Shown in pieces: positions 4,525 to 16,301 of a stretch of 41,513 nt of DNA (position 1 is its first letter; every line of letters starts with the position of its first letter). The translations under genes and the position numbers were made by a program. The DNA comes from a virus. The stretch is taken from positions 1 through 41,513 of the IMG/VR virus record IMGVR_UViG_3300045120_000458, one strand, 5' to 3'. The notes beneath the pieces were generated by a model, which had not been told where the DNA came from, did no database searches, and saw nothing but the letters and a program-made list of their open reading frames with translations.

Positions 4525-4859
4525 TAGAGCGCCTGCATGATCGCTTTGACGCGGATCCGCGGCTTGAGGTTTTTCCGCTTAAGGGCGTGTTCTTGCAGCA
4601 GCTTCTCGATCTTTCGCGCCAGCATAAATGTTGCTGCACTCTCGCGTGGGGCTGCTGCCGTATAGGCTTGCAGCGTTGCTTCGATCTGCGCCTTGAGGAT
4701 TGGGTGCTGCAGGGCGAATTCGATCAGGTCCGCGTTTCTGGCCGAAGCCGAGAGGATGCCTTTCTGGTCGAGAAAGGCTTTCCAGCTTTTGTGCGCCTTG
4801 ACGCGGGCGCGGATTTCGCCGCGCAGGGAGGTCGGGATTTGAGTGTTGAGGGTAAGCAT
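4524..4859 (-). CDS. Small early protein of unknown function (111 aa)
   Basis: I do not recognise a family. The 111-residue protein starts MLTLNTQIPTSLRGEIRARV and is helical and basic toward the C-terminus (LKRKNLKPRIRVK), so nucleic-acid binding is conceivable. The start ATG follows AAGGAAAAATCA, a good ribosome site. It has its own promoter and operator 36-75 bases upstream (see 4895-4934), so it belongs to the set of early genes under shared palindromic control. It ends beside the candidate origin, converging on the helicase gene. Confidence 0.8.
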   Translation of the reverse strand: MLTLNTQIPTSLRGEIRARVKAHKSWKAFLDQKGILSASARNADLIEFALQHPILKAQIEATLQAYTAAAPRESAATFMLARKIEKLLQEHALKRKNLKPRIRVKAIMQAL

Positions 4860-4894: not shown

Positions 4895-4934
4895 AGCATA
4901 GAAACGAGGGTGTTGAATGTCAACACCCTCGTTT
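4895..4934 (-). promoter_or_regulatory. Promoter with overlapping palindromic operator (copy 1)
   Basis: On the minus strand TTGACA (4923-4918), a 17-base spacer and TATGCT (4900-4895) form a near-consensus sigma-70 promoter for the 111-aa gene. The -35 box lies inside a perfect inverted repeat with 15-base arms (AAACGAGGGTGTTGA and its complement) around a 3-base centre, 4902-4934. The core GGGTGTTGA/TCAACACCC recurs at 6071-6093 and 6378-6398. A repressor bound here would block the -35 box. Confidence 0.8.
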
Positions 4935-4954
4935 TAATGGGTCAGGCTTTTTGC

Positions 4955-6004
4955 TTAGGCGGCGATCGCCACCCGATCCTTGACGAGGGGCATCAGCAGG
5001 CTCATCGCCTTACCCTTGAGTTGATCGCCGCTGCCGAACTGTGCGGAGGCAAACCGTGCTACGGTTTCGGACTGATCCCCCTTCTGCACCGAGCGGTCGT
5101 GGTCGGCGTAGCGGGTGATGGCTTGCAGCGCCGACCACACGCTGTTCTTCTCGGCGCCTTCCCGGACGCTGGTTGAATAGGCGCGCGACAGGTCGCTGAA
5201 CTGGTTCATCTTGCGGGACGAGATATCTTCTTTCTTGGCGTCGAACGGGATCTCCAGCACGGTTTTGAAGAATTCTGAGATCTGCTGTGCTGACATCTCG
5301 ACTTGCGCCATGGCGTCGCCAATCGCCTTGTATTGGGCGAAGCCAGAAGCCAGTTGCGCTAATTCCTTGCCGACCTTGGCAGCGTCGAACCGGGTCGAGT
5401 GCCGGGTCTTGATTGCCGCCTTGCTGTCGGCGTGGGCGATCCGCAGGGTATTCTGACACACCACGCGCGTCATGCTGCACTGGTTGATGGTGGCGCCGGA
5501 TCCGTCGAACGTCGTGCTCATGAGCACCCGCGCGCTGTGGTTCTCACCGGCCACCGAGATGTCGCCGTTGTACTTGGCGGTGGCCCAAATCCGCTTGCCG
5601 CCGTCCAGTGAGCCGCAAACGTCTAAGGCGAAACGATCATCGACTGCGATGTATTTGTCGAACCACGCCAGCACGTCGGCGGGTTGCACGATTTGGTAGC
5701 CGCTGCTGTCGGTTTCGCCGGAGACGTAGCCCAACAACCCGGCGTTGTCCGAGCGCACCACGAAGGCGCGATCGGGCGCGGGCAACATGCGTTTGCCCGC
5801 TTCGATGTGGTCGAATTGCGGGCCGTTCAGGGCGACCAGCGCGGGCACTTTGACGGCGGACCAGCCAAGCCCGGCCGCATCGGCCCATGCGTCGATGGAC
5901 TGGCCGGTTAGCATTTCCTGGCCCATGCGGTGCCAGACGTCGTTGCGGGAACCTAAGAAGGCGATGTTGGCGCGATTGTTGGTCATATCGATATTGTGAG
6001 CCAT
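4955..6004 (-). CDS. DUF932 family phage/plasmid-like protein
   Basis: A 349-residue protein of the DUF932 family, widespread on phages and plasmids and of unproven function. Recognisable blocks are the N-terminal AFLGSRNDVWHRMGQ, then ALVALNGP, GYQIVQPADVLAWFD, and MTRVVCQNTLRIAH in the centre. Its full length is normal for the family. The ATG lies 6 bases from a 13-base leader element AGAAAGATCT-type sequence that is repeated before the SSB gene at 36042. It has its own operator-promoter at 6059-6093. A role in DNA replication or host takeover is only suggested by company. Confidence 0.88.
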   Translation of the reverse strand: MAHNIDMTNNRANIAFLGSRNDVWHRMGQEMLTGQSIDAWADAAGLGWSAVKVPALVALNGPQFDHIEAGKRMLPAPDRAFVVRSDNAGLLGYVSGETDSSGYQIVQPADVLAWFDKYIAVDDRFALDVCGSLDGGKRIWATAKYNGDISVAGENHSARVLMSTTFDGSGATINQCSMTRVVCQNTLRIAHADSKAAIKTRHSTRFDAAKVGKELAQLASGFAQYKAIGDAMAQVEMSAQQISEFFKTVLEIPFDAKKEDISSRKMNQFSDLSRAYSTSVREGAEKNSVWSALQAITRYADHDRSVQKGDQSETVARFASAQFGSGDQLKGKAMSLLMPLVKDRVAIAA

Positions 6005-6058: not shown

Positions 6059-6093
6059 GAAATACGCGGGAGGGTGTTGAATGTCAACACCCT
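6059..6093 (-). promoter_or_regulatory. Promoter with overlapping palindromic operator (copy 2)
   Basis: Minus-strand TTGACA (6087-6082), 17-base spacer, TATTTC (6064-6059). The -35 box sits in a perfect inverted repeat, arms AGGGTGTTGA/TCAACACCCT around a 3-base centre (6071-6093). It drives the DUF932 gene. The -10 box is weaker than in copy 1. Confidence 0.72.
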
Positions 6094-6107
6094 GGTTTGA
6101 AAAATTT

Positions 6108-6364: not shown

Positions 6365-6398
6365 GATGTAGCCGCGAGGGTGTTGAATGTCAACACCC
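6365..6398 (-). promoter_or_regulatory. Promoter with overlapping palindromic operator (copy 3)
   Basis: Minus-strand TTGACA (6393-6388), 17-base spacer, TACATC (6370-6365). The palindrome core GGGTGTTGA/TCAACACCC with 3-base centre is at 6378-6398. A further partial copy, GGGTGTTGAAT, lies at 6421-6431 on the plus strand, in the leader of the terminase operon. The region is divergent, so a factor bound here could also act on late transcription. A plus-strand TTGAAT is present in the same element, but I see no convincing -10 at normal spacing. Confidence 0.68.
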
Positions 6399-6488
6399 AC
6401 GATAAAAATAAAATCTTGAAGGGTGTTGAATTTGTCCGCGCTTGTTTCAAAGGGTCCGCGGCATTACGTCAAATCACTGAAAGGCGTG

Positions 6489-7397
6489 ATGTTGCTCGGC
6501 GTCGATCTGAGGGACGCGAGGGAAGAGATTTTCGTTCGTATGGTCTGCGACGGGATCGCCCTTGGCGTCGCTTATGTTAGAGCCGGGTTCAAGCCTAATC
6601 CTGTTGCAGCTTCAGAACTGTTTGCCTTACCGCGCATTCAGGAACGGGCGAATAAGATACTTGAGGCGAGACGGACAACGGGCGTCGTCACGCTCTCAGA
6701 GGTGACCGACATGCTGCAGCGGGTGTTTGCTGGCGCCCACAGCGCAGAGGAGTACAGCGCGGCGCACAACGCGGCGTTCAGCCTCGCGAGGCTGTACGGC
6801 CACGTCACGGACAAGGCGACGCTGGAGGTGATCCGGAGGCCGTCCCGGGATCCGGACGCGCCGAGCGAACAGGTCCTCAGCGATTGGGTGGCGTCGCTGC
6901 CTGTGGTGTCGGGTTCAAGCTCTCAGTTGTTCGGGCCCGAGCCCGCGCCGTCCGAACCTGCGGATCTCGCTAGTACGGATCTCCCTATTGGAGGGCCGTT
7001 TCGTGGCGCCCCCGCCGCGCCAATAGGGCTCGGGCCTTCGGACCAACCCAGGGCTATCGACGGCGCGGTCGAGGGCTCGGTTCCCGAGTTGACCGCGGTC
7101 AACTCGGGCCCTGAGGGCTCGCGCCCTCAGCTGGATTTGTTCAACGATAGCAACGGCTTGGCAGGCGCCACGCGGGGGATGGAAACCGGAAACGGGGCCC
7201 CAACTCGGCCGGTAACTGGGACCCCCGCAGCGTGCGCACGCACCACCCCATTAGTAAAACGGCCCGCCAAAACGAAACAGGTACCGGTTAAAAAACGGGT
7301 GAAGAAGCGTAAGCTGGCGAAGCCTTCTGCGAAGGTTTCGCAGCCGCCGAAGCCGCTGAAGCCTCGTATTCCGAGCGCCAGGGTTCTGTTCGGATGA
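6489..7397 (+). CDS. Terminase small subunit (TerS)
   Basis: A 302-residue protein from ATG 6489, chosen because GAAAGG lies 4 bases upstream. A GTG at 6423 would add 22 residues but overlaps the operator half-site and lacks a ribosome site. The folded part (up to about residue 150) has RIQERANKILEARR, VVTLSEVTDMLQRVF and AAFSLARLYGHV, the helical pattern of terminase small subunits that recognise packaging sites. The rest is a long disordered tail rich in Pro and Ser, ending in a Lys/Pro-rich stretch (KKRVKKRKLAKP). It overlaps the large subunit gene by ATGA. The coding part of the disordered tail contains three long inverted repeats. Confidence 0.85.
   Translation: MLLGVDLRDAREEIFVRMVCDGIALGVAYVRAGFKPNPVAASELFALPRIQERANKILEARRTTGVVTLSEVTDMLQRVFAGAHSAEEYSAAHNAAFSLARLYGHVTDKATLEVIRRPSRDPDAPSEQVLSDWVASLPVVSGSSSQLFGPEPAPSEPADLASTDLPIGGPFRGAPAAPIGLGPSDQPRAIDGAVEGSVPELTAVNSGPEGSRPQLDLFNDSNGLAGATRGMETGNGAPTRPVTGTPAACARTTPLVKRPAKTKQVPVKKRVKKRKLAKPSAKVSQPPKPLKPRIPSARVLFG
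6983..7130. repeat. Cluster of three inverted repeats in terS, candidate packaging site
   Basis: Three inverted repeats sit in 148 bases. The first is CCCTATTGG (6983-6991) with CCAATAGGG (7019-7027). The second is a perfect 26-base palindrome with half-site CCCGAGTTGACCG at 7083-7108. The third is CTGAGGGC/GCCCTCAG with a 4-base loop at 7111-7130. They lie in the segment encoding the low-complexity tail of the small terminase, where protein sequence constrains little. In P22-like phages the pac site lies inside the small terminase gene, so this is a reasonable candidate. Alternatives are RNA structures affecting terL translation. Confidence 0.45.
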
Positions 7398-8800
7398 AGA
7401 TCATTACCGGCTTCAAGCCGCAGCCGGGCCCGCAGCACCATTTCCTGACCTGCCCGGCCGATATCGTGGTGTACGGCGGTGCTCGCGGAGGTGGCAAATC
7501 GTTCGCGAGCCTCGGCGAGTTCTGGTGCCATGCCGAGGATTGGGGGCCGCACGCCAAGGGCCTGATGCTGCGGCGCAGCCGCGAGGATCTCAAGGACACC
7601 ATCGACGTCGCGCGGCAAATGTACGGCAGCGCTGCCGAATGGAAGGACAAGGAGAAGCAATTCCGTTTCCGCAACGGCGCGGTGTTTCACATGGCGTATC
7701 TCGAAAGCGATGCCGACGCCATGAACTACCAGGGCTGGAGCCTCACCCGGGTCTATGTCGAGGAGCTGACGCAATACGCTTCCTCCACCGGGATATTCAG
7801 GTTGTTCGCGACTTTACGCACAACCTCGGGCGCCCGGTGCCAATTTAGAGCCACCTGCAACCCCGGCGGCCCGGGACATCACTGGGTCAAGCAATGGATC
7901 ATCGACAACGGCGCCTACCAGCCCGTGAAAGACCACGAGACCGGCCTGATCCGGATCTTCATCCCGGCAAAAATCTCCGACAACCCGGCGTTGCTGAACC
8001 ATGATCCCGCCTACATCAACCGGCTGCGGGCTTCCGGCTCTGCCGCCCTCGTCAGAGCCTGGCTGGAGGGCGACTGGAACGTGATCGAGGGCGCCTTCTT
8101 TCCCGAGTTCGATCCCAACCGTCACGTCATTCCGCCGTTGCGGATGCCGCTGCACTGGACCCGCTTCCGCAGCATGGACTGGGGCAGCGCCACCCCCTTC
8201 TCGATCGGCTGGTGGGTTGTGATCCAGGACGATACCATCCACGACAAACGCCGCTTGCCCAAGAATTCGATCGTCAGATACCGCGAGTGGTACGGTGCCT
8301 CGGCCTCCAACGTCGGCCTGCGTTTACCGGCGGATGCCGTCGCCAAGGAAGTCGTCAGGCGAGAAACCGATGGCAAAGGATTTCGCGAACCGATCGCGTA
8401 TGGCATCATGGACCCTTCCGCTTTCCAGGTCGTGTCAGGTCCGAGCATTGGTGAAACATTTGCACGCAACGGCGTGTACTTCCGGCGTGCCGATAACGCG
8501 CGTGTCTCTACGCCGAAGCGGATGGGTGGTTGGGATCAGATCCGCTGGCGGCTCCGCGGCGACGAAGCCGGAGACCCCATGATGTTCTTCGTCGACCATT
8601 GCAAGGATCTTATCCGCACGCTGCCGATGATGCAGCACGATAGCAACCGCCCCGAGGACCTCGATACCGAGGGCGAGGACCATGCCGTCGATGATACTCG
8701 CTATGCGTGCATGTCCCGGCCGTTCGGCAACCGGGTCGAAGACGACGAGGACCGCAACCCCTTGCTGGTGCGGAACGCTTTTCGGCTGGATAGCTTGTGA
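7394..8800 (+). CDS. Terminase large subunit (TerL)
   Basis: The 468-residue DNA-packaging motor ATPase and nuclease. Walker A is GGARGGGKS (K35), Walker B is VYVEE (E123/E124), and the coupling motif is RATCNPGG (about 152-159). The RNase H-like nuclease has acidic residues in SMDWGS (D262), GIMDPSAF (D340) and AVDDTRY (D433/D434). Length and motif order are normal. It is coupled to terS by ATGA. The assignment is very secure. Confidence 0.97.
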   Translation: MKIITGFKPQPGPQHHFLTCPADIVVYGGARGGGKSFASLGEFWCHAEDWGPHAKGLMLRRSREDLKDTIDVARQMYGSAAEWKDKEKQFRFRNGAVFHMAYLESDADAMNYQGWSLTRVYVEELTQYASSTGIFRLFATLRTTSGARCQFRATCNPGGPGHHWVKQWIIDNGAYQPVKDHETGLIRIFIPAKISDNPALLNHDPAYINRLRASGSAALVRAWLEGDWNVIEGAFFPEFDPNRHVIPPLRMPLHWTRFRSMDWGSATPFSIGWWVVIQDDTIHDKRRLPKNSIVRYREWYGASASNVGLRLPADAVAKEVVRRETDGKGFREPIAYGIMDPSAFQVVSGPSIGETFARNGVYFRRADNARVSTPKRMGGWDQIRWRLRGDEAGDPMMFFVDHCKDLIRTLPMMQHDSNRPEDLDTEGEDHAVDDTRYACMSRPFGNRVEDDEDRNPLLVRNAFRLDSL

Positions 8801-8842: not shown

Positions 8843-11332
8843 ATGGCGTCGACCACCTATGGGGCCGCAGACGAGCGCCCGCCGGGCGCCGACCTCCGCT
8901 CGCCCGAGGCCGACCGCCCGGACGTGCCGCAACCCGATGTCACCTCGACCGACGACGTTGATCTCGGCTGGTGGGAACGCGCCTTGAGTGATGCCGAGCG
9001 GGCCGAAAAGGACTGGCGCACCCGGGGCCGCGACATCGTCCAGATCTACCGCGGCGACATTCCCATCACCCGCCCCCGTGCGGGCAAGTACAACGCCGCC
9101 ACCGTCTACGGCTCCAGGCAGGACTTAGCCTCGGCCTTCAACATCCTCTATGCCAACACCGAGGTGATGCTGCCCGCGGCCTATTCGAAGCCGCCGGATC
9201 CGGTCGTCAGAAGCCGCTTCATCAAGAAGACCGCCGACCCGATCCAGCCCGTGCCGCCTCCCCCTCCCGGAATGCCGCCTGGCATGCCCCCCGGTATGCC
9301 GCCGCCCGGCGGTATGCCGCCTGGCGGGCCTCCGGGCCCGCTGGGTGCGCTTCCGCCGGGAATGGGTCCTCCAGGCCCGCCCGGCCCGCAAGCCCCTCCT
9401 GGGCCTCCGCAAGGCCTTCCAGGCCCAGGTCCGGCGCCCGCGCCTCCGTCTCCTGCACCCCCGCCGCCTCCGGCGGTGAGCGGATCGCCTTCCCCGCTGC
9501 CGGGGGATGCGGGAGCCCAAGGCGGAGGGATCGGGGGTCCGCCGCCGCAGCTAACGCCCCAGCCCCCCGGCGGCGGGCCTCCACCTCCCGCGCCCCCACC
9601 CCCCGGCCTTGGCCCCGCGCTTCCGGCCCCGACGCCATCAGGGCTGCCGGAACAGAACGACATCGAGACCGCCGCGGCGGTGATGGAGAAGGCCTTAGAA
9701 ATTGTCGTCTCCGATGAGGCCTCTCACGAGGCGGTGAAATCCGCGGTGCGGGATATGCTGCTTCCAGGCAGAGGCGTCTGCCGGGTGCGCTGGAAGCCGG
9801 TCATCAAGCCGGTCCCGGTCGACGACCCCGTGATGGGCGGCCAATTGGCGCATCCGGTGACCGGCGAGCCGCAGACCCGGGAGACCAAGATCTGGGAGAC
9901 CGTCGATGACGAGTACGTGTTCTGGGAAGACCTGTTGATGGATCCGGTGCGGCAGCATTCGGATGTCAGCTGGATCGCGTTCCGGCATCTGTTCGATCAA
10001 CAGTCTTTGTTGCAGGAGTTCGACGACAGCCCGCAACTGAAAGCGCTGCAGGCCCAAAATAAAATCTCTGACCTCTTCAAGTGGACCGAGGAGACCGCCG
10101 CCAAATCCCCGATCGGCGGCGGAGCATCACCCAAGACGGCGGGCCGTCTCGATGCCGTGATCAGGAAAGCCATGGTCTGGGAGGTCTGGAATAGATCCAC
10201 CAAAGAAATTATCTGGTTGATCAGGGAGAGCGGCGGCATCGCCCTGCGGGTGGATCCGGACGCCCTTGGGTTGCAGGGCTTCTATCCCATTCCCAAGCCG
10301 ATCTACGCCGTCGTCACCACCGACAGCATGATCCCGAAGGCGTTCTACGATCTCTACGCTGCCTTGGCCGCGGATCTCGACGACACCTCGCGGCGCATCT
10401 CCGATCTCACCAACAAGATCAAAGTCCGCGGCGGCTACAACGCCGCTAACAAGGACATCGCCAGCCTGTTGACCGCCGACGACGGCAAGCTGCTGCCGGT
10501 CGATGGCGTCGACCTGATGTCGGGTGGATTGCAGAACCATATCTGGCTCGTCCCCATTCTCGAATGGGTCAACGCCTTAAAAGAACTCTACGCCAGCCGC
10601 GATCAGCAGAAGCAGGCGATCTACGAAATCATCGGCTTGTCGGATATCGTTAGAGGCGCTTCCAACCCCTATGAAACCGCCACCGCCCAGCGCATCAAGG
10701 GCACCATGGGCACCGGCCGGATGCAGGGCGTCAAGACCGCGGTGGCCAATTTCGTCCGCGACATGATGCGGATGAAAGGCGACATCATTGCCAAGAATTT
10801 TGACGCCGAAACCCTCACTAAAATGACCGGCGAGAACGTCACGCCGCAGGTGATGTCGATACTTCGTAGTGACTTCACACGGGTCTGCGCCATCGATATC
10901 GAAACCGATAGCACGGTCGAGATCGACGAGACCACCGAGAAGGAAAGCAACGCCCAGACCATGCAGGTGATCGGCGCGGTGATGACCGCGGCGCAAGGCA
11001 TGCTGCAGACCGGCCTGCTGCCGCCGCCGATGATCATTCAACTCACGTTAGAAATGGTCAAGATGATGCTGCATCCGGTGCGCCATTCCCGTGGCGTGAT
11101 TGACCTCATCAACGGCTATCAGGAGTTGCTCACCAACTTCATGAAAGCCGACCCGATGGGCGTCAGCATGCGCCCGCCCGCCCCGCCGCCCGGTGCCCCG
11201 CCATCGCCACCCCTGCCGCCAAGAGGCGCCAATGGCCAACACCCGCCGCAACCCGGCCAGGGCCTTCCACCAGGGGGTCCGCCGCGTCCAGGCCCCCCGC
11301 CGCAGCCCGTCACCCGGCCGTCCAGCCCGTAA
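8843..11332 (+). CDS. Portal protein with a large Pro/Gly-rich insertion
   Basis: An 829-residue portal of the podovirus type (P22 gp1-like). The core blocks include WWERALSDAERAEKDWRTRGRD-type N-terminal helices, AFNILYANTEVMLPAAYS, the DEYVFWEDLLMDPVRQ region, DDTSRRISDLTNKIKVRGGYN and IIGLSDIVRGASNPYETATAQRIKG. Residues about 133-271 are instead almost entirely Pro and Gly, with repeats such as PPGMPPGMPPGMPP, and the C-terminal 50 residues are also Pro-rich. Core sequence resumes at DIETAAAVMEKALEIVV. The insertion keeps frame and interrupts the point where related portals run on directly. Forms the dodecameric DNA channel at the capsid vertex. Confidence 0.93.
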   Translation: MASTTYGAADERPPGADLRSPEADRPDVPQPDVTSTDDVDLGWWERALSDAERAEKDWRTRGRDIVQIYRGDIPITRPRAGKYNAATVYGSRQDLASAFNILYANTEVMLPAAYSKPPDPVVRSRFIKKTADPIQPVPPPPPGMPPGMPPGMPPPGGMPPGGPPGPLGALPPGMGPPGPPGPQAPPGPPQGLPGPGPAPAPPSPAPPPPPAVSGSPSPLPGDAGAQGGGIGGPPPQLTPQPPGGGPPPPAPPPPGLGPALPAPTPSGLPEQNDIETAAAVMEKALEIVVSDEASHEAVKSAVRDMLLPGRGVCRVRWKPVIKPVPVDDPVMGGQLAHPVTGEPQTRETKIWETVDDEYVFWEDLLMDPVRQHSDVSWIAFRHLFDQQSLLQEFDDSPQLKALQAQNKISDLFKWTEETAAKSPIGGGASPKTAGRLDAVIRKAMVWEVWNRSTKEIIWLIRESGGIALRVDPDALGLQGFYPIPKPIYAVVTTDSMIPKAFYDLYAALAADLDDTSRRISDLTNKIKVRGGYNAANKDIASLLTADDGKLLPVDGVDLMSGGLQNHIWLVPILEWVNALKELYASRDQQKQAIYEIIGLSDIVRGASNPYETATAQRIKGTMGTGRMQGVKTAVANFVRDMMRMKGDIIAKNFDAETLTKMTGENVTPQVMSILRSDFTRVCAIDIETDSTVEIDETTEKESNAQTMQVIGAVMTAAQGMLQTGLLPPPMIIQLTLEMVKMMLHPVRHSRGVIDLINGYQELLTNFMKADPMGVSMRPPAPPPGAPPSPPLPPRGANGQHPPQPGQGLPPGGPPRPGPPPQPVTRPSSP

Positions 11333-11353
11333 CAAACCGAAAGGGAAGCCCCG

Positions 11354-11845
11354 ATGACCGACCCCCGAACCCCGCCCCACACGCCCCCGGCCTCACCCCC
11401 GCGTCCCGCCACGCCGCAGCGATCCCATGACAACCCGAACCAGGATCCCGATCACCCGGCCAACAGGACCCTCTCCCCCGAGCGGCCCCCCGTTCAGCGC
11501 TCCGCGGCCGAGAGCTTCAACATCCCGCCGGAAGACCTGATGACGGCGCAGGAGAGCGATCAGGCTGGTGCTGTCCCGGGTGTCGGACCGGCCTCGCCTG
11601 CCGAACTCTCGCCAGGCCCGGCTGTGACCATCGAGGAGCTGGGCATCGGTCCCCGGACCCCTTACCCGGATGGTGATCCGCCGCCGCCGGTCGAGACCGT
11701 CACCCAGGGCCAAGGCATCAAGGGCGTCACCGACAAATCCGTCCTCAAGCCCGGCGATCCCAACGTTCGCACGGGCGTCGCCGCCAACCGGCCTGCGCCC
11801 CCGCCGCCTCCGCCGCCGCCGCCCAGCAGACCTCCGGTCCGATAA
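11354..11845 (+). CDS. Proline-rich disordered protein (163 aa)
   Basis: No known family. The 163-residue protein has almost no hydrophobic core. It is rich in Pro, begins MTDPRTPPHTPPASPPRP and ends with ten consecutive Pro residues before SRPPVR. A less biased central segment (SFNIPPEDLMTAQESDQ, TIEELGIGPRTPYP) may carry a short interaction motif. GGGAAG precedes the ATG. It lies between portal and collagen-like genes and shares their composition. It is likely a virion or assembly component, but this is context only. Confidence 0.7.
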   Translation: MTDPRTPPHTPPASPPRPATPQRSHDNPNQDPDHPANRTLSPERPPVQRSAAESFNIPPEDLMTAQESDQAGAVPGVGPASPAELSPGPAVTIEELGIGPRTPYPDGDPPPPVETVTQGQGIKGVTDKSVLKPGDPNVRTGVAANRPAPPPPPPPPPSRPPVR

Positions 11846-11877
11846 TGTTAAACCCGAACCCCACAGGAGCTTGCGAC

Positions 11878-12393
11878 ATGCAACCATTTCTGGCGATGAT
11901 TACCCCGATCGGCAACATCGGCGGCCCCGGCGGTCCCGGCAGCCCCGGAGGTCCCGGAGGTCCCGGAGGTCCCGGCGGCCAGCCCCCGGTCTATCCGGCG
12001 CACCCGATCGCCGGAGGCCCGTGGCCGAGCCACCCGATCGCCGGTCCGCAGCCGCCGCAGCCGGGTGGCGGCCAGCCGCCGCAGCCGACCCACCCGATCT
12101 ATTTCCCGCCGGAAGGTTCGCAGCCGCCGCTCGGGATCTGGGGCGGACCGCCGCTGTATCCGGACATCGGCGGCCCGGCGCCGCAGCCGAAACCGGAGCA
12201 TCCGATCGTGCTGCCGCCGGATCTGCCGCCGGATATTCCGCCCCCGGAGGGCGGCGGTTCGCCGAGTCCGATCGAGTGGAAGACGGGCTGGACCCAGGAG
12301 ACCGGCTGGATCATCGTCGGCATCGTCACGCCGCCCGATACCCACCCGACGCCGTCGGTGGCACCTGCCGCACCCGCTGGGCGACGCCGATGA
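11878..12393 (+). CDS. Collagen-like Gly-Pro-Gly protein
   Basis: A 171-residue protein from ATG 11878, which has AGGAG 8 bases upstream; an earlier in-frame ATG at 11845 lacks one. After MQPFLAMITPIGNI comes a run of GPG/SPG triplets (about residues 15-34), then Pro-rich segments with repeated HPIAG/HPIY/HPIV motifs. The C-terminal part contains WKTGWTQETGWIIVGIV before a Pro-rich end. The triplets resemble collagen-like phage proteins that form fibres or capsid decorations. It overlaps the next gene by ATGA. Confidence 0.75.
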   Translation: MQPFLAMITPIGNIGGPGGPGSPGGPGGPGGPGGQPPVYPAHPIAGGPWPSHPIAGPQPPQPGGGQPPQPTHPIYFPPEGSQPPLGIWGGPPLYPDIGGPAPQPKPEHPIVLPPDLPPDIPPPEGGGSPSPIEWKTGWTQETGWIIVGIVTPPDTHPTPSVAPAAPAGRRR

Positions 12394-12983
12394 CCATGGT
12401 GCGCTATCCGCTGCCGATCACGGTGGCGATGTTGGCGCCTGCTGACCCGAACATCGACCGGCCGCGCTATGGTACGCCAGGCGACTGGTCGATGGGCGTC
12501 ACCGGCAACGACGTCGACATCTCGGCCCGCAGCGAAGCGGTGGTGACGCGAACTGGCACGGTGACGCCCTACCCGATCCGCACCCAGACCGCCAAAGGGG
12601 CGGCGATGGTGCCGCCGCTTACGCCGGGCGTCGATATCGGCATCGACTATGGCGCCTATGCGGGCCAGACCGGCCGTACCGGCACCATCACGCCGAAAGC
12701 GCCCTACCCGGACGCCACCTCGCCGCCGGTCGTGACGCGGGTCAGTCCGAACACCGGTCTGGCGGCGGGCGGCACCGCCGTCACCATCTCGGGGTGGAAC
12801 CTGACCGGTGCCACCGCGGTGACGTTCGGCGGCACCGCAGCAACCGCCGTCACGGTCGTCAATGCGACGACGGTCACGGCGACCGCTCCGGCGCATGCCA
12901 CCGGCACCGTCGACGTGCAGGTGACGACGCCGAGAGGCGTCAGCCCGGCCGCGGGTGCGGCGGATAATTTCATCTACACGTGA
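12390..12983 (+). CDS. IPT/TIG-domain protein, possible capsid decoration
   Basis: A 197-residue protein starting at ATG 12390 (MTMVRYPLPITVAM), coupled to the collagen-like gene by ATGA. The C-terminal half (about 112-197) is an IPT/TIG immunoglobulin-like domain: VTRVSPNTGLAAGG, VTISGWNLTGATAVTFGG, VNATTVTATAPAHATGTVDV and a final NFIYT strand. Such domains commonly decorate phage capsids or fibres and bind surfaces weakly. The N-terminal part has repeated TPYP/KAPYP motifs and no recognised fold. Position between portal and scaffold suggests a virion protein. Confidence 0.8.
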   Translation: MTMVRYPLPITVAMLAPADPNIDRPRYGTPGDWSMGVTGNDVDISARSEAVVTRTGTVTPYPIRTQTAKGAAMVPPLTPGVDIGIDYGAYAGQTGRTGTITPKAPYPDATSPPVVTRVSPNTGLAAGGTAVTISGWNLTGATAVTFGGTAATAVTVVNATTVTATAPAHATGTVDVQVTTPRGVSPAAGAADNFIYT

Positions 12984-12989
12984 GGCATC

Positions 12990-13265
12990 ATGAGCGGCGG
13001 TTTCCGTCCCAACGAACAGATGCGTCTTCCCGGTCTGGGGGTCCCCGTCGATCCCTTGACCGGCGAATTGCTGCAGCCGGTGGTGCTGGCGCGGTTGGCC
13101 CGGCTCCGGGACGCCGAGGGCATCGTTCGCCAGATCCTGCACGAGCTTTCCGGCAGCACGATGGGCTCGCGGCCGGGTGACCGCCGCATGGCGATGGCGT
13201 TCACCAAGCTCGAAGAGGTTCTGATGTGGGCCACCGCAGCGATACTGGATCATTACCCGGATTAG
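12990..13265 (+). CDS. Small Acb2/Tad1-hairpin-like protein, candidate cyclic-nucleotide sponge
   Basis: A 91-residue helical protein. Its C-terminal half, GDRRMAMAFTKLEEVLMWATAAI, follows the pattern I know for the Acb2/Tad1 hairpin family (a basic residue, then ALAxTKLEEAxMWAxxAI). A first helix is RLARLRDAEGIVRQILHEL. Acb2 and Tad1 proteins bind CBASS or Thoeris cyclic nucleotide signals and blunt host defence. GAGG lies 5 bases before the ATG. Function is inference from a short motif; it could instead be a structural helper, given its place between TIG and scaffold genes. The likely nucleotide-contacting residues cannot be fixed without a structure. Confidence 0.62.
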   Translation: MSGGFRPNEQMRLPGLGVPVDPLTGELLQPVVLARLARLRDAEGIVRQILHELSGSTMGSRPGDRRMAMAFTKLEEVLMWATAAILDHYPD

Positions 13266-13271
13266 AGGGTC

Positions 13272-13574
13272 ATGCCGACTTACGTATTCTATGATGGACG
13301 ACTGATCGAAAAACGCTACCGCCCGGCCAGGCCGCAACACGCCGTTTCGGAGCTGCCTGCTCCGGCCGTGCAGTCGTTCGAGAGCTATCCGAGCCCGATC
13401 GACGACGCCGTGATTTCGTCCAGCCGCCAGCGCGAGCGCGATCTCCACCATTCCGATAGCTACGATCCCCGGGATACTCCCGCAGCTTTCAAGAAAGCCA
13501 GAGATGTCAGATACCAACAACGGTGCCGGTCCGTCCCAACCGAGCCTGAGAGAGATCGCCGAACAGGCTTATGA
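13272..13574 (+). CDS. Small head-region protein (100 aa)
   Basis: Starts MPTYVFYDGRLIEK, an opening common to small phage proteins placed before the scaffold or capsid gene, and is otherwise polar. The last 23 codons overlap the scaffold gene in another frame. GAGGGTC precedes the ATG. I know no biochemical function. The reading frame is supported by tight spacing (6 bases from the previous stop). Confidence 0.7.
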   Translation: MPTYVFYDGRLIEKRYRPARPQHAVSELPAPAVQSFESYPSPIDDAVISSSRQRERDLHHSDSYDPRDTPAAFKKARDVRYQQRCRSVPTEPERDRRTGL

Positions 13575-14700
13575 CGATCTGGAGCGCGGCGCGGAAGAGG
13601 TGGCTCCGGAGCTCTCCGAACCCTCGGAGCTCGCCGAGCCCCTTGCGTCGGACGACAGACCGCGCGATAAAAGCGGCCGTTGGGTTGCGAAATCGGCCCA
13701 GCCAGGCGAAGCAATCGCGCAACCCCCCGTTGCCGATCCAGCCCTGAAGCCAACCGTTTCCGAGACCCGTGCGACAGTCCCTGATCCAGCCGCCGCGCAA
13801 GCGCCGAGAAGCAATCAGGTCCCCGAGCACTGGAGCGCCGAAGACAAGGCGGTCTTCGCCAAACTTCCTGCAGAAGGACAGGCCTTCCTTCTCAGGCGGC
13901 ACGGCGAAATGGAAGCCGAGTTCACGCGCAAGTCTCAGGCGAGTGCGGGAGCAGTCCAGTTTACGCAGTCGCTCGCGCCAGTGTTTACCGATCGGCGGAT
14001 CCAGTCGTCGTTGCAGCAGGCGGGCCTCAACCCGACGCAAGCGGTCCAGGAATGGGCGGGCTTTCACGTCCGGGCCACCTCCCCGAACCTGCAGGACCGG
14101 TTCAACCTGCTGGTAGACCTGACCGAGCGGATGGGGCTGGACCCAGCGCGCATCTTCTCCGCCCTCAACAAATCGCCGTTGCCGGAAGGTCTGTCGGAAG
14201 CAGAACTGAAGGACCCGGCGGTCAAATTCTTCGCGGATCGTCTCGGTCAGACCACGGGTGAACTGAACGCGCTCAAGAATGAGATGCAACAGCGCTGGGC
14301 CCAGGAAAACCAGGCCCGCGCGCAAGCCGGGGAAGCCCATGCGAGGGCGAACATCGATCAGTTCGCGGACGAGAAAGCGGCCGACGGCACCCCGTTGCGG
14401 CCGCACTTCAACGCCGTGCTGCCGATCCTGCTCGACCTTTTCAAGGCCAATCCGCAGCGCAGCCTCGCCGAAGCCTACGACGCGGCGTGCTGGTCTCATC
14501 CTGAGGTCCGGAAGCAATTACTGGCAGCCGAACAGTATCGCCAGCAATCGCGGCAGGACGTCGAGAAAGCCAAGATCGCGCAGCGCGGCAACGCCCGGGG
14601 GCTTACCAGCCCTGCGGTCAAGCCGCCTGGCGTTAACGGGCCTTCGCGGGGATCGTTGCGGGACACCATTGAGCAGGCGGCCGAGCAGATCGGGTATTAA
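13504..14700 (+). CDS. Scaffolding / capsid assembly protein
   Basis: A 398-residue acidic, Ala/Glu/Gln-rich protein directly upstream of the major capsid gene. An unstructured N-terminus with RDKSGRWVAK is followed by EHWSAEDKAVFAKLP and GQAFLLRRHGEMEAEFTRK, then long helices. This is the standard layout of podovirus scaffold-type proteins. The start overlaps the previous gene by 71 bases; AAGAAAG lies before the ATG. Role inferred from position and composition. Confidence 0.82.
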   Translation: MSDTNNGAGPSQPSLREIAEQAYDDLERGAEEVAPELSEPSELAEPLASDDRPRDKSGRWVAKSAQPGEAIAQPPVADPALKPTVSETRATVPDPAAAQAPRSNQVPEHWSAEDKAVFAKLPAEGQAFLLRRHGEMEAEFTRKSQASAGAVQFTQSLAPVFTDRRIQSSLQQAGLNPTQAVQEWAGFHVRATSPNLQDRFNLLVDLTERMGLDPARIFSALNKSPLPEGLSEAELKDPAVKFFADRLGQTTGELNALKNEMQQRWAQENQARAQAGEAHARANIDQFADEKAADGTPLRPHFNAVLPILLDLFKANPQRSLAEAYDAACWSHPEVRKQLLAAEQYRQQSRQDVEKAKIAQRGNARGLTSPAVKPPGVNGPSRGSLRDTIEQAAEQIGY

Positions 14701-14717
14701 CCTTATAGGAGCGCCAT

Positions 14718-15671
14718 ATGGCCGACCCGACAGTCAGCATGCTCGTCGCCACCACCATCGAGAATTATCACAAGCAGTTTGCCGACAATGTTTCCAACAG
14801 TAACGCCGTCACCGCGCTGTTGCGGGAAGGCAACCGCGTTCGCGTCATCGAAGGCGGCCGTGCGATCGGCTGTCCGCTGATCTACGCCGAAGAAACCTTT
14901 CTTTGGTACGCCGGGACCGACATGCTGTCCCGCGCCACCAAGGATACGATTTCCGAGGCGACCTACTCCCCGGCCAACGCCGTCGCCTCGGTGACGCTGG
15001 CGGGTGCCGATCTGGCCAAGAACCGTTCCAAGGAGCGCATCCTCAATTTGCTGGAGGGCAAGCTCGAGAACGCCCAGGCCACCATGAAGAACAACATCAC
15101 CAAGGCGGTCTACGGCGACGGCACGGTGGCGAAATCCTTCGCGGGCCTCAAGGCGTTCGTCACGGTGGACGGCCTCGGCATCGTCGGCGGCATTGACGCC
15201 TCAACCTGGACATTCTGGAAGAACCAGTTTCAGAGCGTCGCCCGCGCCACCGGGCTGCAGTATCCGGCGTTGAAGGCGGGCATGGCTGCGCTCTGGATGA
15301 AGCTGATCCGCGGCGCCGAGAAACCTGACTTGATCGTCGCCGACGGTGAAATCTATTCCACCTATGAGAGCGGCTTGCAGGAGAACCAGCGTTACGCCGA
15401 CGCCAAGCTCGGGGCGCTCGGTTTCGAGACGCTGAAATACAAGACCGCGCCGCTGGTGTTCGATGGTGTCGCCACCGGCCTGACCGGCGCTTACTACCTC
15501 AACACCAAATACATGAAGTTCGAGATCTATTCGGGCCGGAATTTCGAAAGCCTCGATTTGCCCGATCAATCGCCGGATATGGATGCCGTGACCCGTCATC
15601 TCGCCTTCATGGGCGCGCTGACGCTGTCCAACCGTGCGATGCAGGGCAGGCTCACCGCAACCGGAACTTGA
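14718..15671 (+). CDS. Major capsid protein
   Basis: A 317-residue protein with a strong AGGAG site 8 bases before its ATG. The sequence is typical of short HK97-fold capsid proteins lacking a delta domain: an N-terminal helix (MLVATTIENYHKQFADNVS), IEGGRAIGCPLIYAEE, AKNRSKERILNLLEGKLENA, and a C-terminal IYSGRNFESLDLP. No protease gene is seen. A stem-loop terminator directly follows, in keeping with a highly expressed product. Position after scaffold supports the call. Confidence 0.9.
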   Translation: MADPTVSMLVATTIENYHKQFADNVSNSNAVTALLREGNRVRVIEGGRAIGCPLIYAEETFLWYAGTDMLSRATKDTISEATYSPANAVASVTLAGADLAKNRSKERILNLLEGKLENAQATMKNNITKAVYGDGTVAKSFAGLKAFVTVDGLGIVGGIDASTWTFWKNQFQSVARATGLQYPALKAGMAALWMKLIRGAEKPDLIVADGEIYSTYESGLQENQRYADAKLGALGFETLKYKTAPLVFDGVATGLTGAYYLNTKYMKFEIYSGRNFESLDLPDQSPDMDAVTRHLAFMGALTLSNRAMQGRLTATGT

Positions 15672-15680
15672 GCCCGGTAT

Positions 15681-15718
15681 AACGGCGGCCGGTTTGCGGG
15701 GAGCACGGCCGCCGTTTT
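15681..15718 (+). terminator. Intrinsic terminator after the capsid gene
   Basis: Perfect 11-bp stem AACGGCGGCCG/CGGCCGCCGTT with a 14-base loop, followed by TTTT. It begins 9 bases after the capsid stop. It would reduce transcription into the downstream adaptor and tail genes, giving more capsid than tail message. Confidence 0.82.
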
Positions 15719-15743
15719 CCCGTAGCTCCCTAATGGAGTCAAG

Positions 15744-16301
15744 ATGTCTGACACCGATACCCCGGCACTGGTGCGTTTTTACTCTGGCTGGCAGCGCGAC
15801 GGCAACGGCCCCGATGGGTTGCCGTGCTACCGCGAGACCGTTCGGGTGCGGCTGGACCGGCCGCCGTATCTCTCGGTGGAACGGGAAGCCGAAGCAGCGG
15901 ATATTACCGACCATCCCGGGCCTTATGAGCTGTATCAAAAGACCTGTGACGCCCGCAAAGAAATCGTCGGCTACCCCTTGGCGCTGTGGCCCGCTTGTCC
16001 GCCGCACATCTTTCAGATGTGCGCGGTGCGCGACATCCATACCGTCGAACAGCTGGCGCAGCTGGTCAGCAAGCGGCGCCGTGCCGAGGCGGTCAAGACC
16101 ATCCCGCCCGACATCATCGAGATCGCCGACCGCGCCGTGCGGATGATCGAACTGCAGTCGAAGGCTGGTCAGTACGAAGAGCTGGTGACCAATCTGCAAG
16201 GCCAGATCGAGGCGATGAAGGAGCAGCTTGGAGATGCCGCCGCCACCATCGCGGCGCAGAAGACCATGATTGAAACGCTCAGACTGAAAGCGGTGGCCTG
16301 A
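15744..16301 (+). CDS. Hypothetical virion-region protein (185 aa)
   Basis: Not recognised. The N-terminal half (MSDTDTPALVRFYSGWQRDG to YPLALWPACPPHIF) looks globular. The C-terminal third (QSKAGQYEELVTNLQGQIEAMKEQ-type, about 138-180) is a coiled coil. GGAG precedes the ATG. It overlaps the next start by one base (TGATG). A head-tail or neck accessory role is possible from its location. Confidence 0.78.
   Translation: MSDTDTPALVRFYSGWQRDGNGPDGLPCYRETVRVRLDRPPYLSVEREAEAADITDHPGPYELYQKTCDARKEIVGYPLALWPACPPHIFQMCAVRDIHTVEQLAQLVSKRRRAEAVKTIPPDIIEIADRAVRMIELQSKAGQYEELVTNLQGQIEAMKEQLGDAAATIAAQKTMIETLRLKAVA

What the first reader, a model, noticed from the sequence alone, without database searches (positions are those of the whole stretch)
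12990..13265. Acb2/Tad1-like anti-defence protein hidden among head genes
The 91-aa protein carries the hairpin-domain pattern (MAMAFTKLEEVLMWATAAI) I associate with Acb2/Tad1 proteins, which sequester cyclic nucleotide signals of CBASS and Thoeris. It sits between TIG and scaffold genes. If correct, this virulent phage carries a sponge in its structural operon, perhaps made late or packaged. The subtype and ligand could be new for an alphaproteobacterial host.
Basis: partly seen in the sequence, partly recalled or inferred. Interest (0 to 1): 0.78.

Follow-up and report, generated by a model that had tools for sequence, protein, structure and literature searches.

The report
Acb2/Tad1-type hairpin protein in head operon
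A phage carries, among its head-building genes, a small protein of the Acb2/Tad1 family, whose known members soak up the alarm molecules bacteria use against phages; the family match is solid, but binding to such a molecule has not been shown.

Summary
Window 12990-13265 (+) encodes a 91-aa protein matching Pfam PF24729 (Acb2/Tad1 hairpin) at E 1.3e-8, 35.4 bits against a cut-off of 27. An independent profile built around Acb2 and T4 Vs.4 gives 25.6 bits; 2000 shuffles reach at most 5.1. The model is two antiparallel helices; Acb2 and Vs.4 are the top PDB neighbours, with weak E-values.

It is neither Acb2 nor Tad1 proper: no N-terminal beta-sheet is modelled, it has its own conserved N-terminal arm (LPGLGVPVDPxTG), and Glu aligns with the binding Tyr of Vs.4. 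The Thr whose mutation weakens Vs.4 binding is kept.

The head-module position is real: TIG gene, this gene, a 100-aa gene, putative scaffold, capsid. A copy sits there in 43 of 51 related contigs. Eight contigs lack just this gene while the flanking order is kept; the record of one carries another PF24729 gene beside the terminase instead. So it looks like accessory cargo under purifying selection, not an essential head part.

Best reading: a nucleotide-signal sponge of a distinct subfamily, about 0.6. Ligand, oligomer, timing and packaging are untested.

The parts
12990..13265 (+). CDS, 91 aa, Acb2/Tad1 hairpin superfamily protein (proposed sponge)
   Evidence: PF24729 E 1.3e-8 over cut-off; shuffle control; dN/dS 0.12-0.26
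13095..13244 (+). stretch matching PF24729 (profile positions 13-56 of 58)
12990..13076 (+). N-terminal arm, residues 1-29, FRPNEQMRLPGLGVPVDPLTGE; subfamily-specific and strongly conserved, low model confidence
   Evidence: alignments A2 and A4; model
13077..13151 (+). modelled helix 1, residues 30-54
   Evidence: AlphaFold2 model
13182..13250 (+). modelled helix 2, residues 65-87, with FTKLEE..MWA; Thr72 aligns with T68 of T4 Vs.4
   Evidence: T68M effect from PMC12657230
12396..12983 (+). upstream neighbour, IPT/TIG-domain protein (exact start uncertain)
   Evidence: PF01833 E 1.4e-16
13272..13574 (+). downstream neighbour, 100-aa protein of unknown role, conserved in the lineage
13504..14700 (+). 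putative scaffold gene (by position only)
   Evidence: no family hit; conserved before the capsid gene
14718..15671 (+). major capsid protein
   Evidence: phrog_9953 E 3.7e-75

Best explanation
The gene encodes a sponge of the Acb2/Tad1 hairpin superfamily, in a subfamily of its own. Two long antiparallel helices form the protomer; protomers are inferred to assemble (by analogy, into a hexamer) so that helix 2 (TKLEE..MWA) and the N-terminal arm (VPVDPxTG) wall a pocket. Made with the head proteins, it would hold a defence second messenger (cyclic oligonucleotide or gcADPR type) without cutting it and so keep CBASS- or Thoeris-like effectors off. Shown here: family membership of the hairpin, two-helix model, conserved Thr72, purifying selection, location in the head block, accessory distribution. 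Inferred: oligomer, ligand, timing, anti-defence effect.
For: PF24729 above its curated cut-off; 18 of 20 head-locus copies match PF24729 on their own; independent Acb2/Vs.4-based HMM 25.6 bits against 5.1 for the best shuffle; profile-profile match to that set, 94%, E 1e-7; Vs.4 is the first PDB sequence hit of the 20-member profile, E 0.005; Acb2 and Vs.4 head the Foldseek PDB list and Acb2/Tad1 hairpin proteins the viral list; Thr72, aligned with Vs.4 T68, is invariant in 10 close relatives (T68M lowers binding, PMC12657230). Presence/absence in otherwise collinear relatives, and a PF24729 gene at another site in the record of one relative that lacks this copy, fit counter-defence cargo.
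Against: No binding data. The Tyr needed for binding in Vs.4 (Y8) aligns with Glu26 here. Foldseek E-values are above 1 and TM about 0.54. The profile match leaves out positions 1-12 of PF24729, the N-terminal motif. Most PF24729 members have never been tested. No CBASS- or Thoeris-bearing host is known for this phage.
Confidence: 0.6

Rival explanations
1. A hairpin protein of the same ancestry that now serves head morphogenesis, for example a small oligomeric assembly factor or minor head protein, and no longer binds signals.
For: It lies between the TIG and capsid genes in 43 of 51 related contigs that hold the region, is tightly spaced with its neighbours and has a strongly conserved arm not seen in Acb2.
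Against: Eight contigs of the same lineage lack it with the head gene order kept, the 42-kb L102 record has no PF24729 gene at all, and three Aureimonas loci with related portal, scaffold and capsid genes have no member.
Confidence: 0.2
2. A sponge of this superfamily that binds something other than the known Acb2/Tad1 ligands, for example another nucleotide messenger or a metabolite.
For: Glu, His, Phe or Tyr stand at the position of the Acb2/Vs.4 tyrosine in close relatives, and the N-terminal arm is rebuilt.
Against: Helix 2 and its Thr are kept; known members already bind a wide range of ligands (PMC12043709), so a new ligand need not be assumed.
Confidence: 0.15
3. A chance motif or a spurious ORF.
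For: Short protein; only weak single-sequence matches to solved structures.
Against: Curated cut-off passed, shuffle test, homologues in dozens of contigs at the same place, dN/dS well below 1.
Confidence: 0.02

Closest known systems
Acb2 (PaMx33 ORF24 / PaP2 p26, PDB 8H2J, 8H2X; T4 Vs.4, PDB 7UQ2; phrog_717)
   Same: Size (88-93 aa), two-helix hairpin, PF24729, conserved Thr and A..TKL.E..MWA-type helix 2 (Vs.4); first-ranked PDB neighbours
   Different: Not a phrog_717 match; Glu at the binding Tyr; different N-terminal arm; in the head block instead of an early-type block on the strand opposite to the structural genes
Tad1 (PDB 8KBB)
   Same: Helix 2 signature, NAMAITKLQECLMW against MAMAFTKLEEVLMW
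   Different: 91 aa against 132; no N-terminal beta-sheet in the model
Actinophage PF24729 proteins, phrog_1454 (e.g. Mycobacterium phage Taquito gp3, Gordonia phage Battleship gp52)
   Same: Best PHROG match of the window protein, E 3.2e-6; same hairpin signature, consensus GRExALAxTKLEEAMxWANAAIA
   Different: RFxxHP-type N-terminus; the ones checked sit among early or metabolic genes or before the terminase, not between portal and capsid; their function is untested as far as found

Membership tests
PF24729 Acb2_Tad1_hairpin (superfamily) | Profile match above the curated cut-off | tested here: met
   35.4 bits against 27; 18 of 20 head-locus copies match at E <= 0.01
PF24729 Acb2_Tad1_hairpin (superfamily) | Two long antiparallel helices | tested here: met
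   Helices 30-54 and 65-87, pLDDT mostly above 90
Acb2 | Match to the Acb2/Vs.4 sequence group (phrog_717) | tested here: not met
   Window protein matches phrog_1454 and phrog_15810 only; Acb2 and Vs.4 match phrog_717 at about 1e-32
Acb2 | Ligand-binding Tyr in the N-terminal arm (Vs.4 Y8; the aligned Tyr of Acb2 is Y11) | tested here: not met
   Aligned residue is Glu26; Y8A is binding-deficient (PMC12657230). The alignment there is by sequence only and not certain
Acb2 | Thr of helix 2 (Vs.4 T68) | tested here: met
   Thr72, invariant in 10 close relatives
Acb2 | Hexamer that binds cyclic dinucleotides and trinucleotides | not testable with these tools
   Only single-chain prediction is offered; binding needs the bench
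Tad1 | N-terminal antiparallel beta-sheet before the two helices | tested here: not met
   No strands of 3 or more residues in the model; feature from PMC12043709
Tad1 | Sequestration of gcADPR | not testable with these tools
   Needs a binding assay
Essential head protein of this lineage | Always present with the head genes | tested here: not met
   Absent from 8 of 51 contigs with head order kept and from three Aureimonas loci

The most novel reading that the evidence does not exclude
A late-made, possibly virion-carried sponge subfamily whose rebuilt N-terminal arm and acidic pocket residue bind a defence signal that known Acb2/Tad1 proteins do not, fixed in the head operon of a large uncultured phage lineage.
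Probability: 0.12. Interest if true: 0.75.

Novelty: new variant of a known kind. Interest (0 to 1): 0.45.

Why it matters
If it binds a nucleotide signal, it adds a sponge subfamily with an altered pocket from an uncultured phage lineage, and a case where a counter-defence gene is built into the head operon, so that dose and timing would follow capsid production. Its presence and absence in otherwise collinear relatives makes both points directly testable.

Tried and rejected
Acb2 proper and Tad1 proper: rejected on the PHROG group, the Tyr position and the missing beta-sheet. Essential head component: made unlikely by clean absences. Chance motif: rejected by the shuffle test. PADLOC and NCBIfam gave nothing useful. 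The single-sequence PDB search only hinted at Tad1 (E 1.8). No DNA-level relatives of the first 20 kb among 50,697 phage records. No relative in GTDB genomes with the patterns used. The main Acb2/Tad1 papers I looked up by DOI are not held in the library, so the trinucleotide-pocket residues could not be mapped from a source and I left that test out. The promoter scan of 11000-16000 found one site, about what chance gives. Unusually fast evolution of the gene: not claimed, because its small neighbour diverges similarly.

Full report
What is there. The ORF at 12990-13265 (+) is real: ATG start, 91 aa, six bases after the stop of the TIG gene and six before the next gene's ATG. Neighbours in order: terminase large subunit (7394-8800, PF03237), a long portal-like gene (8843-11332; only a sub-threshold SU10-portal match), proline-rich genes, a TIG-domain gene (PF01833), the hairpin gene, a 100-aa gene, a putative scaffold gene, and the major capsid gene.

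Family. Pfam PF24729 matches residues 36-85 at 35.4 bits against a cut-off of 27. The best PHROG is phrog_1454 (E 3.2e-6), to which two actinophage hairpin proteins also belong (E 1e-35 or better). As positive controls the same Pfam model gives T4 Vs.4 70.3 bits, PaMx33 Acb2 65.3 bits, and PaMx41 58.7 bits with one TAG inside, which fits the short PaMx41 gene described in PMC12043709. An HMM made only from Acb2, Vs.4 and nine other phage members, none of them head-locus copies, scores the window protein 25.6 bits; the best of 2000 shuffles has 5.1 and the best other window ORF 5.5. Profile-profile comparison of 20 head-locus members with that set gives probability 94% and E 1e-7 over the C-terminal half. 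With the 20-member profile, Vs.4 is the first hit among all PDB sequences (E 0.005).

Fold. AlphaFold2 with ten sequences gives helices 30-54 and 65-87 at high confidence and a low-confidence arm (mean pLDDT 81.5). Foldseek's first PDB entries are Acb2 8H2X and Vs.4 7UQ2, but with E 1.8, TM about 0.54 and rmsd 6-7 A, so this is ranking evidence only. Among predicted viral proteins the first hits are mostly named 'Acb2/Tad1 hairpin', with probability 0.95-0.99. A diverged relative from the same locus again ranks Vs.4 first, more weakly. A two-helix hairpin is a common shape, so the sequence evidence carries more weight than the fold.

Not Acb2, not Tad1. Tad1 has an N-terminal beta-sheet (PMC12043709); none is modelled here. 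In Vs.4, Y8A is binding-deficient and T68M lowers binding (PMC12657230). MAFFT puts Glu26 at that Tyr and Thr72 at T68. In close relatives the Tyr position is E, F, H or Y, and Thr72 is invariant. The arm (LPGLGVPVDPxTG) is as conserved as helix 2, and VPV(D/N)xxTG is largely kept in relatives only 26-37% identical. I read this as a separate subfamily whose pocket may have changed.

Core or cargo. With the capsid protein I fetched 80 loci of the same lineage. Of 51 other contigs that reach more than 2.3 kb upstream of the capsid gene, 43 have a head-locus copy found by an iterated HMM (some are near duplicates, such as L041-L044). The 8 without it fall into about three groups (L095/L097/L098/L100, L102/L104/L105, L103). 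They keep the 100-aa gene homologue, scaffold and capsid. In them a small gene, whose relatives lie upstream of the hairpin gene in some contigs that have it, is followed directly by the 100-aa gene homologue. Three Aureimonas loci with related portal, scaffold and capsid genes also have no member. The record behind L098 has instead a 72-aa canonical PF24729 gene just before the large terminase gene; L009 has both a head-locus copy and a 75-aa PF24729 gene between terminase and portal; the 42-kb L102 record has none. Accessory counter-defence genes behave this way, and it argues against an essential head part. Divergence of the gene (59-83% identity where the capsid is 87-92%) is similar to that of its small neighbour. 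dN/dS is about 0.12-0.26.

Position compared with known members. The PaMx33/PaMx41 gene is on the strand opposite to the structural block, near a MazG-like gene; T4 vs.4 is near regB, vs and denV; seven other phage members checked sit among early or metabolic genes or before the terminase. A place between portal and capsid is thus unusual in this small sample.

Mechanism. Most likely a signal-holding oligomer made together with the head proteins. Shown: family, likely fold, selection, location, dispensability. Inferred: oligomer, ligand, late timing, effect on defence. Late timing is read only from gene spacing; no convincing promoter was identified. Packaging has no support.

Host and lifestyle. 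No cultured phage is close: the best capsid match is 39% (Bradyrhizobium phage ppBjS10J-1; others in Stenotrophomonas, Myxococcus, Ruegeria). In GTDB genomes only three Aureimonas loci match, at 46-47%. An alphaproteobacterial host is plausible. No tyrosine integrase was found in three related records, which fits a virulent phage without proving it.

Noticed in passing
window 4906-4937, 6070-6101, 6376-6407, 6419-6450: Near-perfect palindrome GAGGGTGTTGA-ATG-TCAACACCCTC repeated upstream of the minus-strand genes that start at 4859, 6004 and 6329, with a weaker copy at the start of the plus-strand gene at 6423; looks like a set of operators or 5' leader hairpins.
   Followed up: no
L009 629-856: A second, different PF24729 gene (75 aa) between terminase and portal in a contig that also has the head-locus copy.
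   Followed up: partly
L106 3230-3448 (record of L098): A canonical PF24729 gene (72 aa, ATG- or GTG-start uncertain) just before the large terminase gene in a phage that lacks the head-locus copy.
   Followed up: partly
L022 4478-4636 (Arthrobacter phage Jasmine): A second, weak PF24729 match directly after the first, below the cut-off (21.3 bits): possible tandem pair of hairpin proteins.
   Followed up: no
record of L028 (IMGVR_UViG_3300047388_000107, 79810 bases): Contains parts identical to the window but is about twice as long as its relatives, and matches the window's right end in several separate pieces at 72-100% identity; may be two related phages joined in assembly.
   Followed up: partly
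window 4955-6004 (-): DUF932 protein (PF06067, E 1.1e-39), preceded by one of the repeated palindromes.
   Followed up: no
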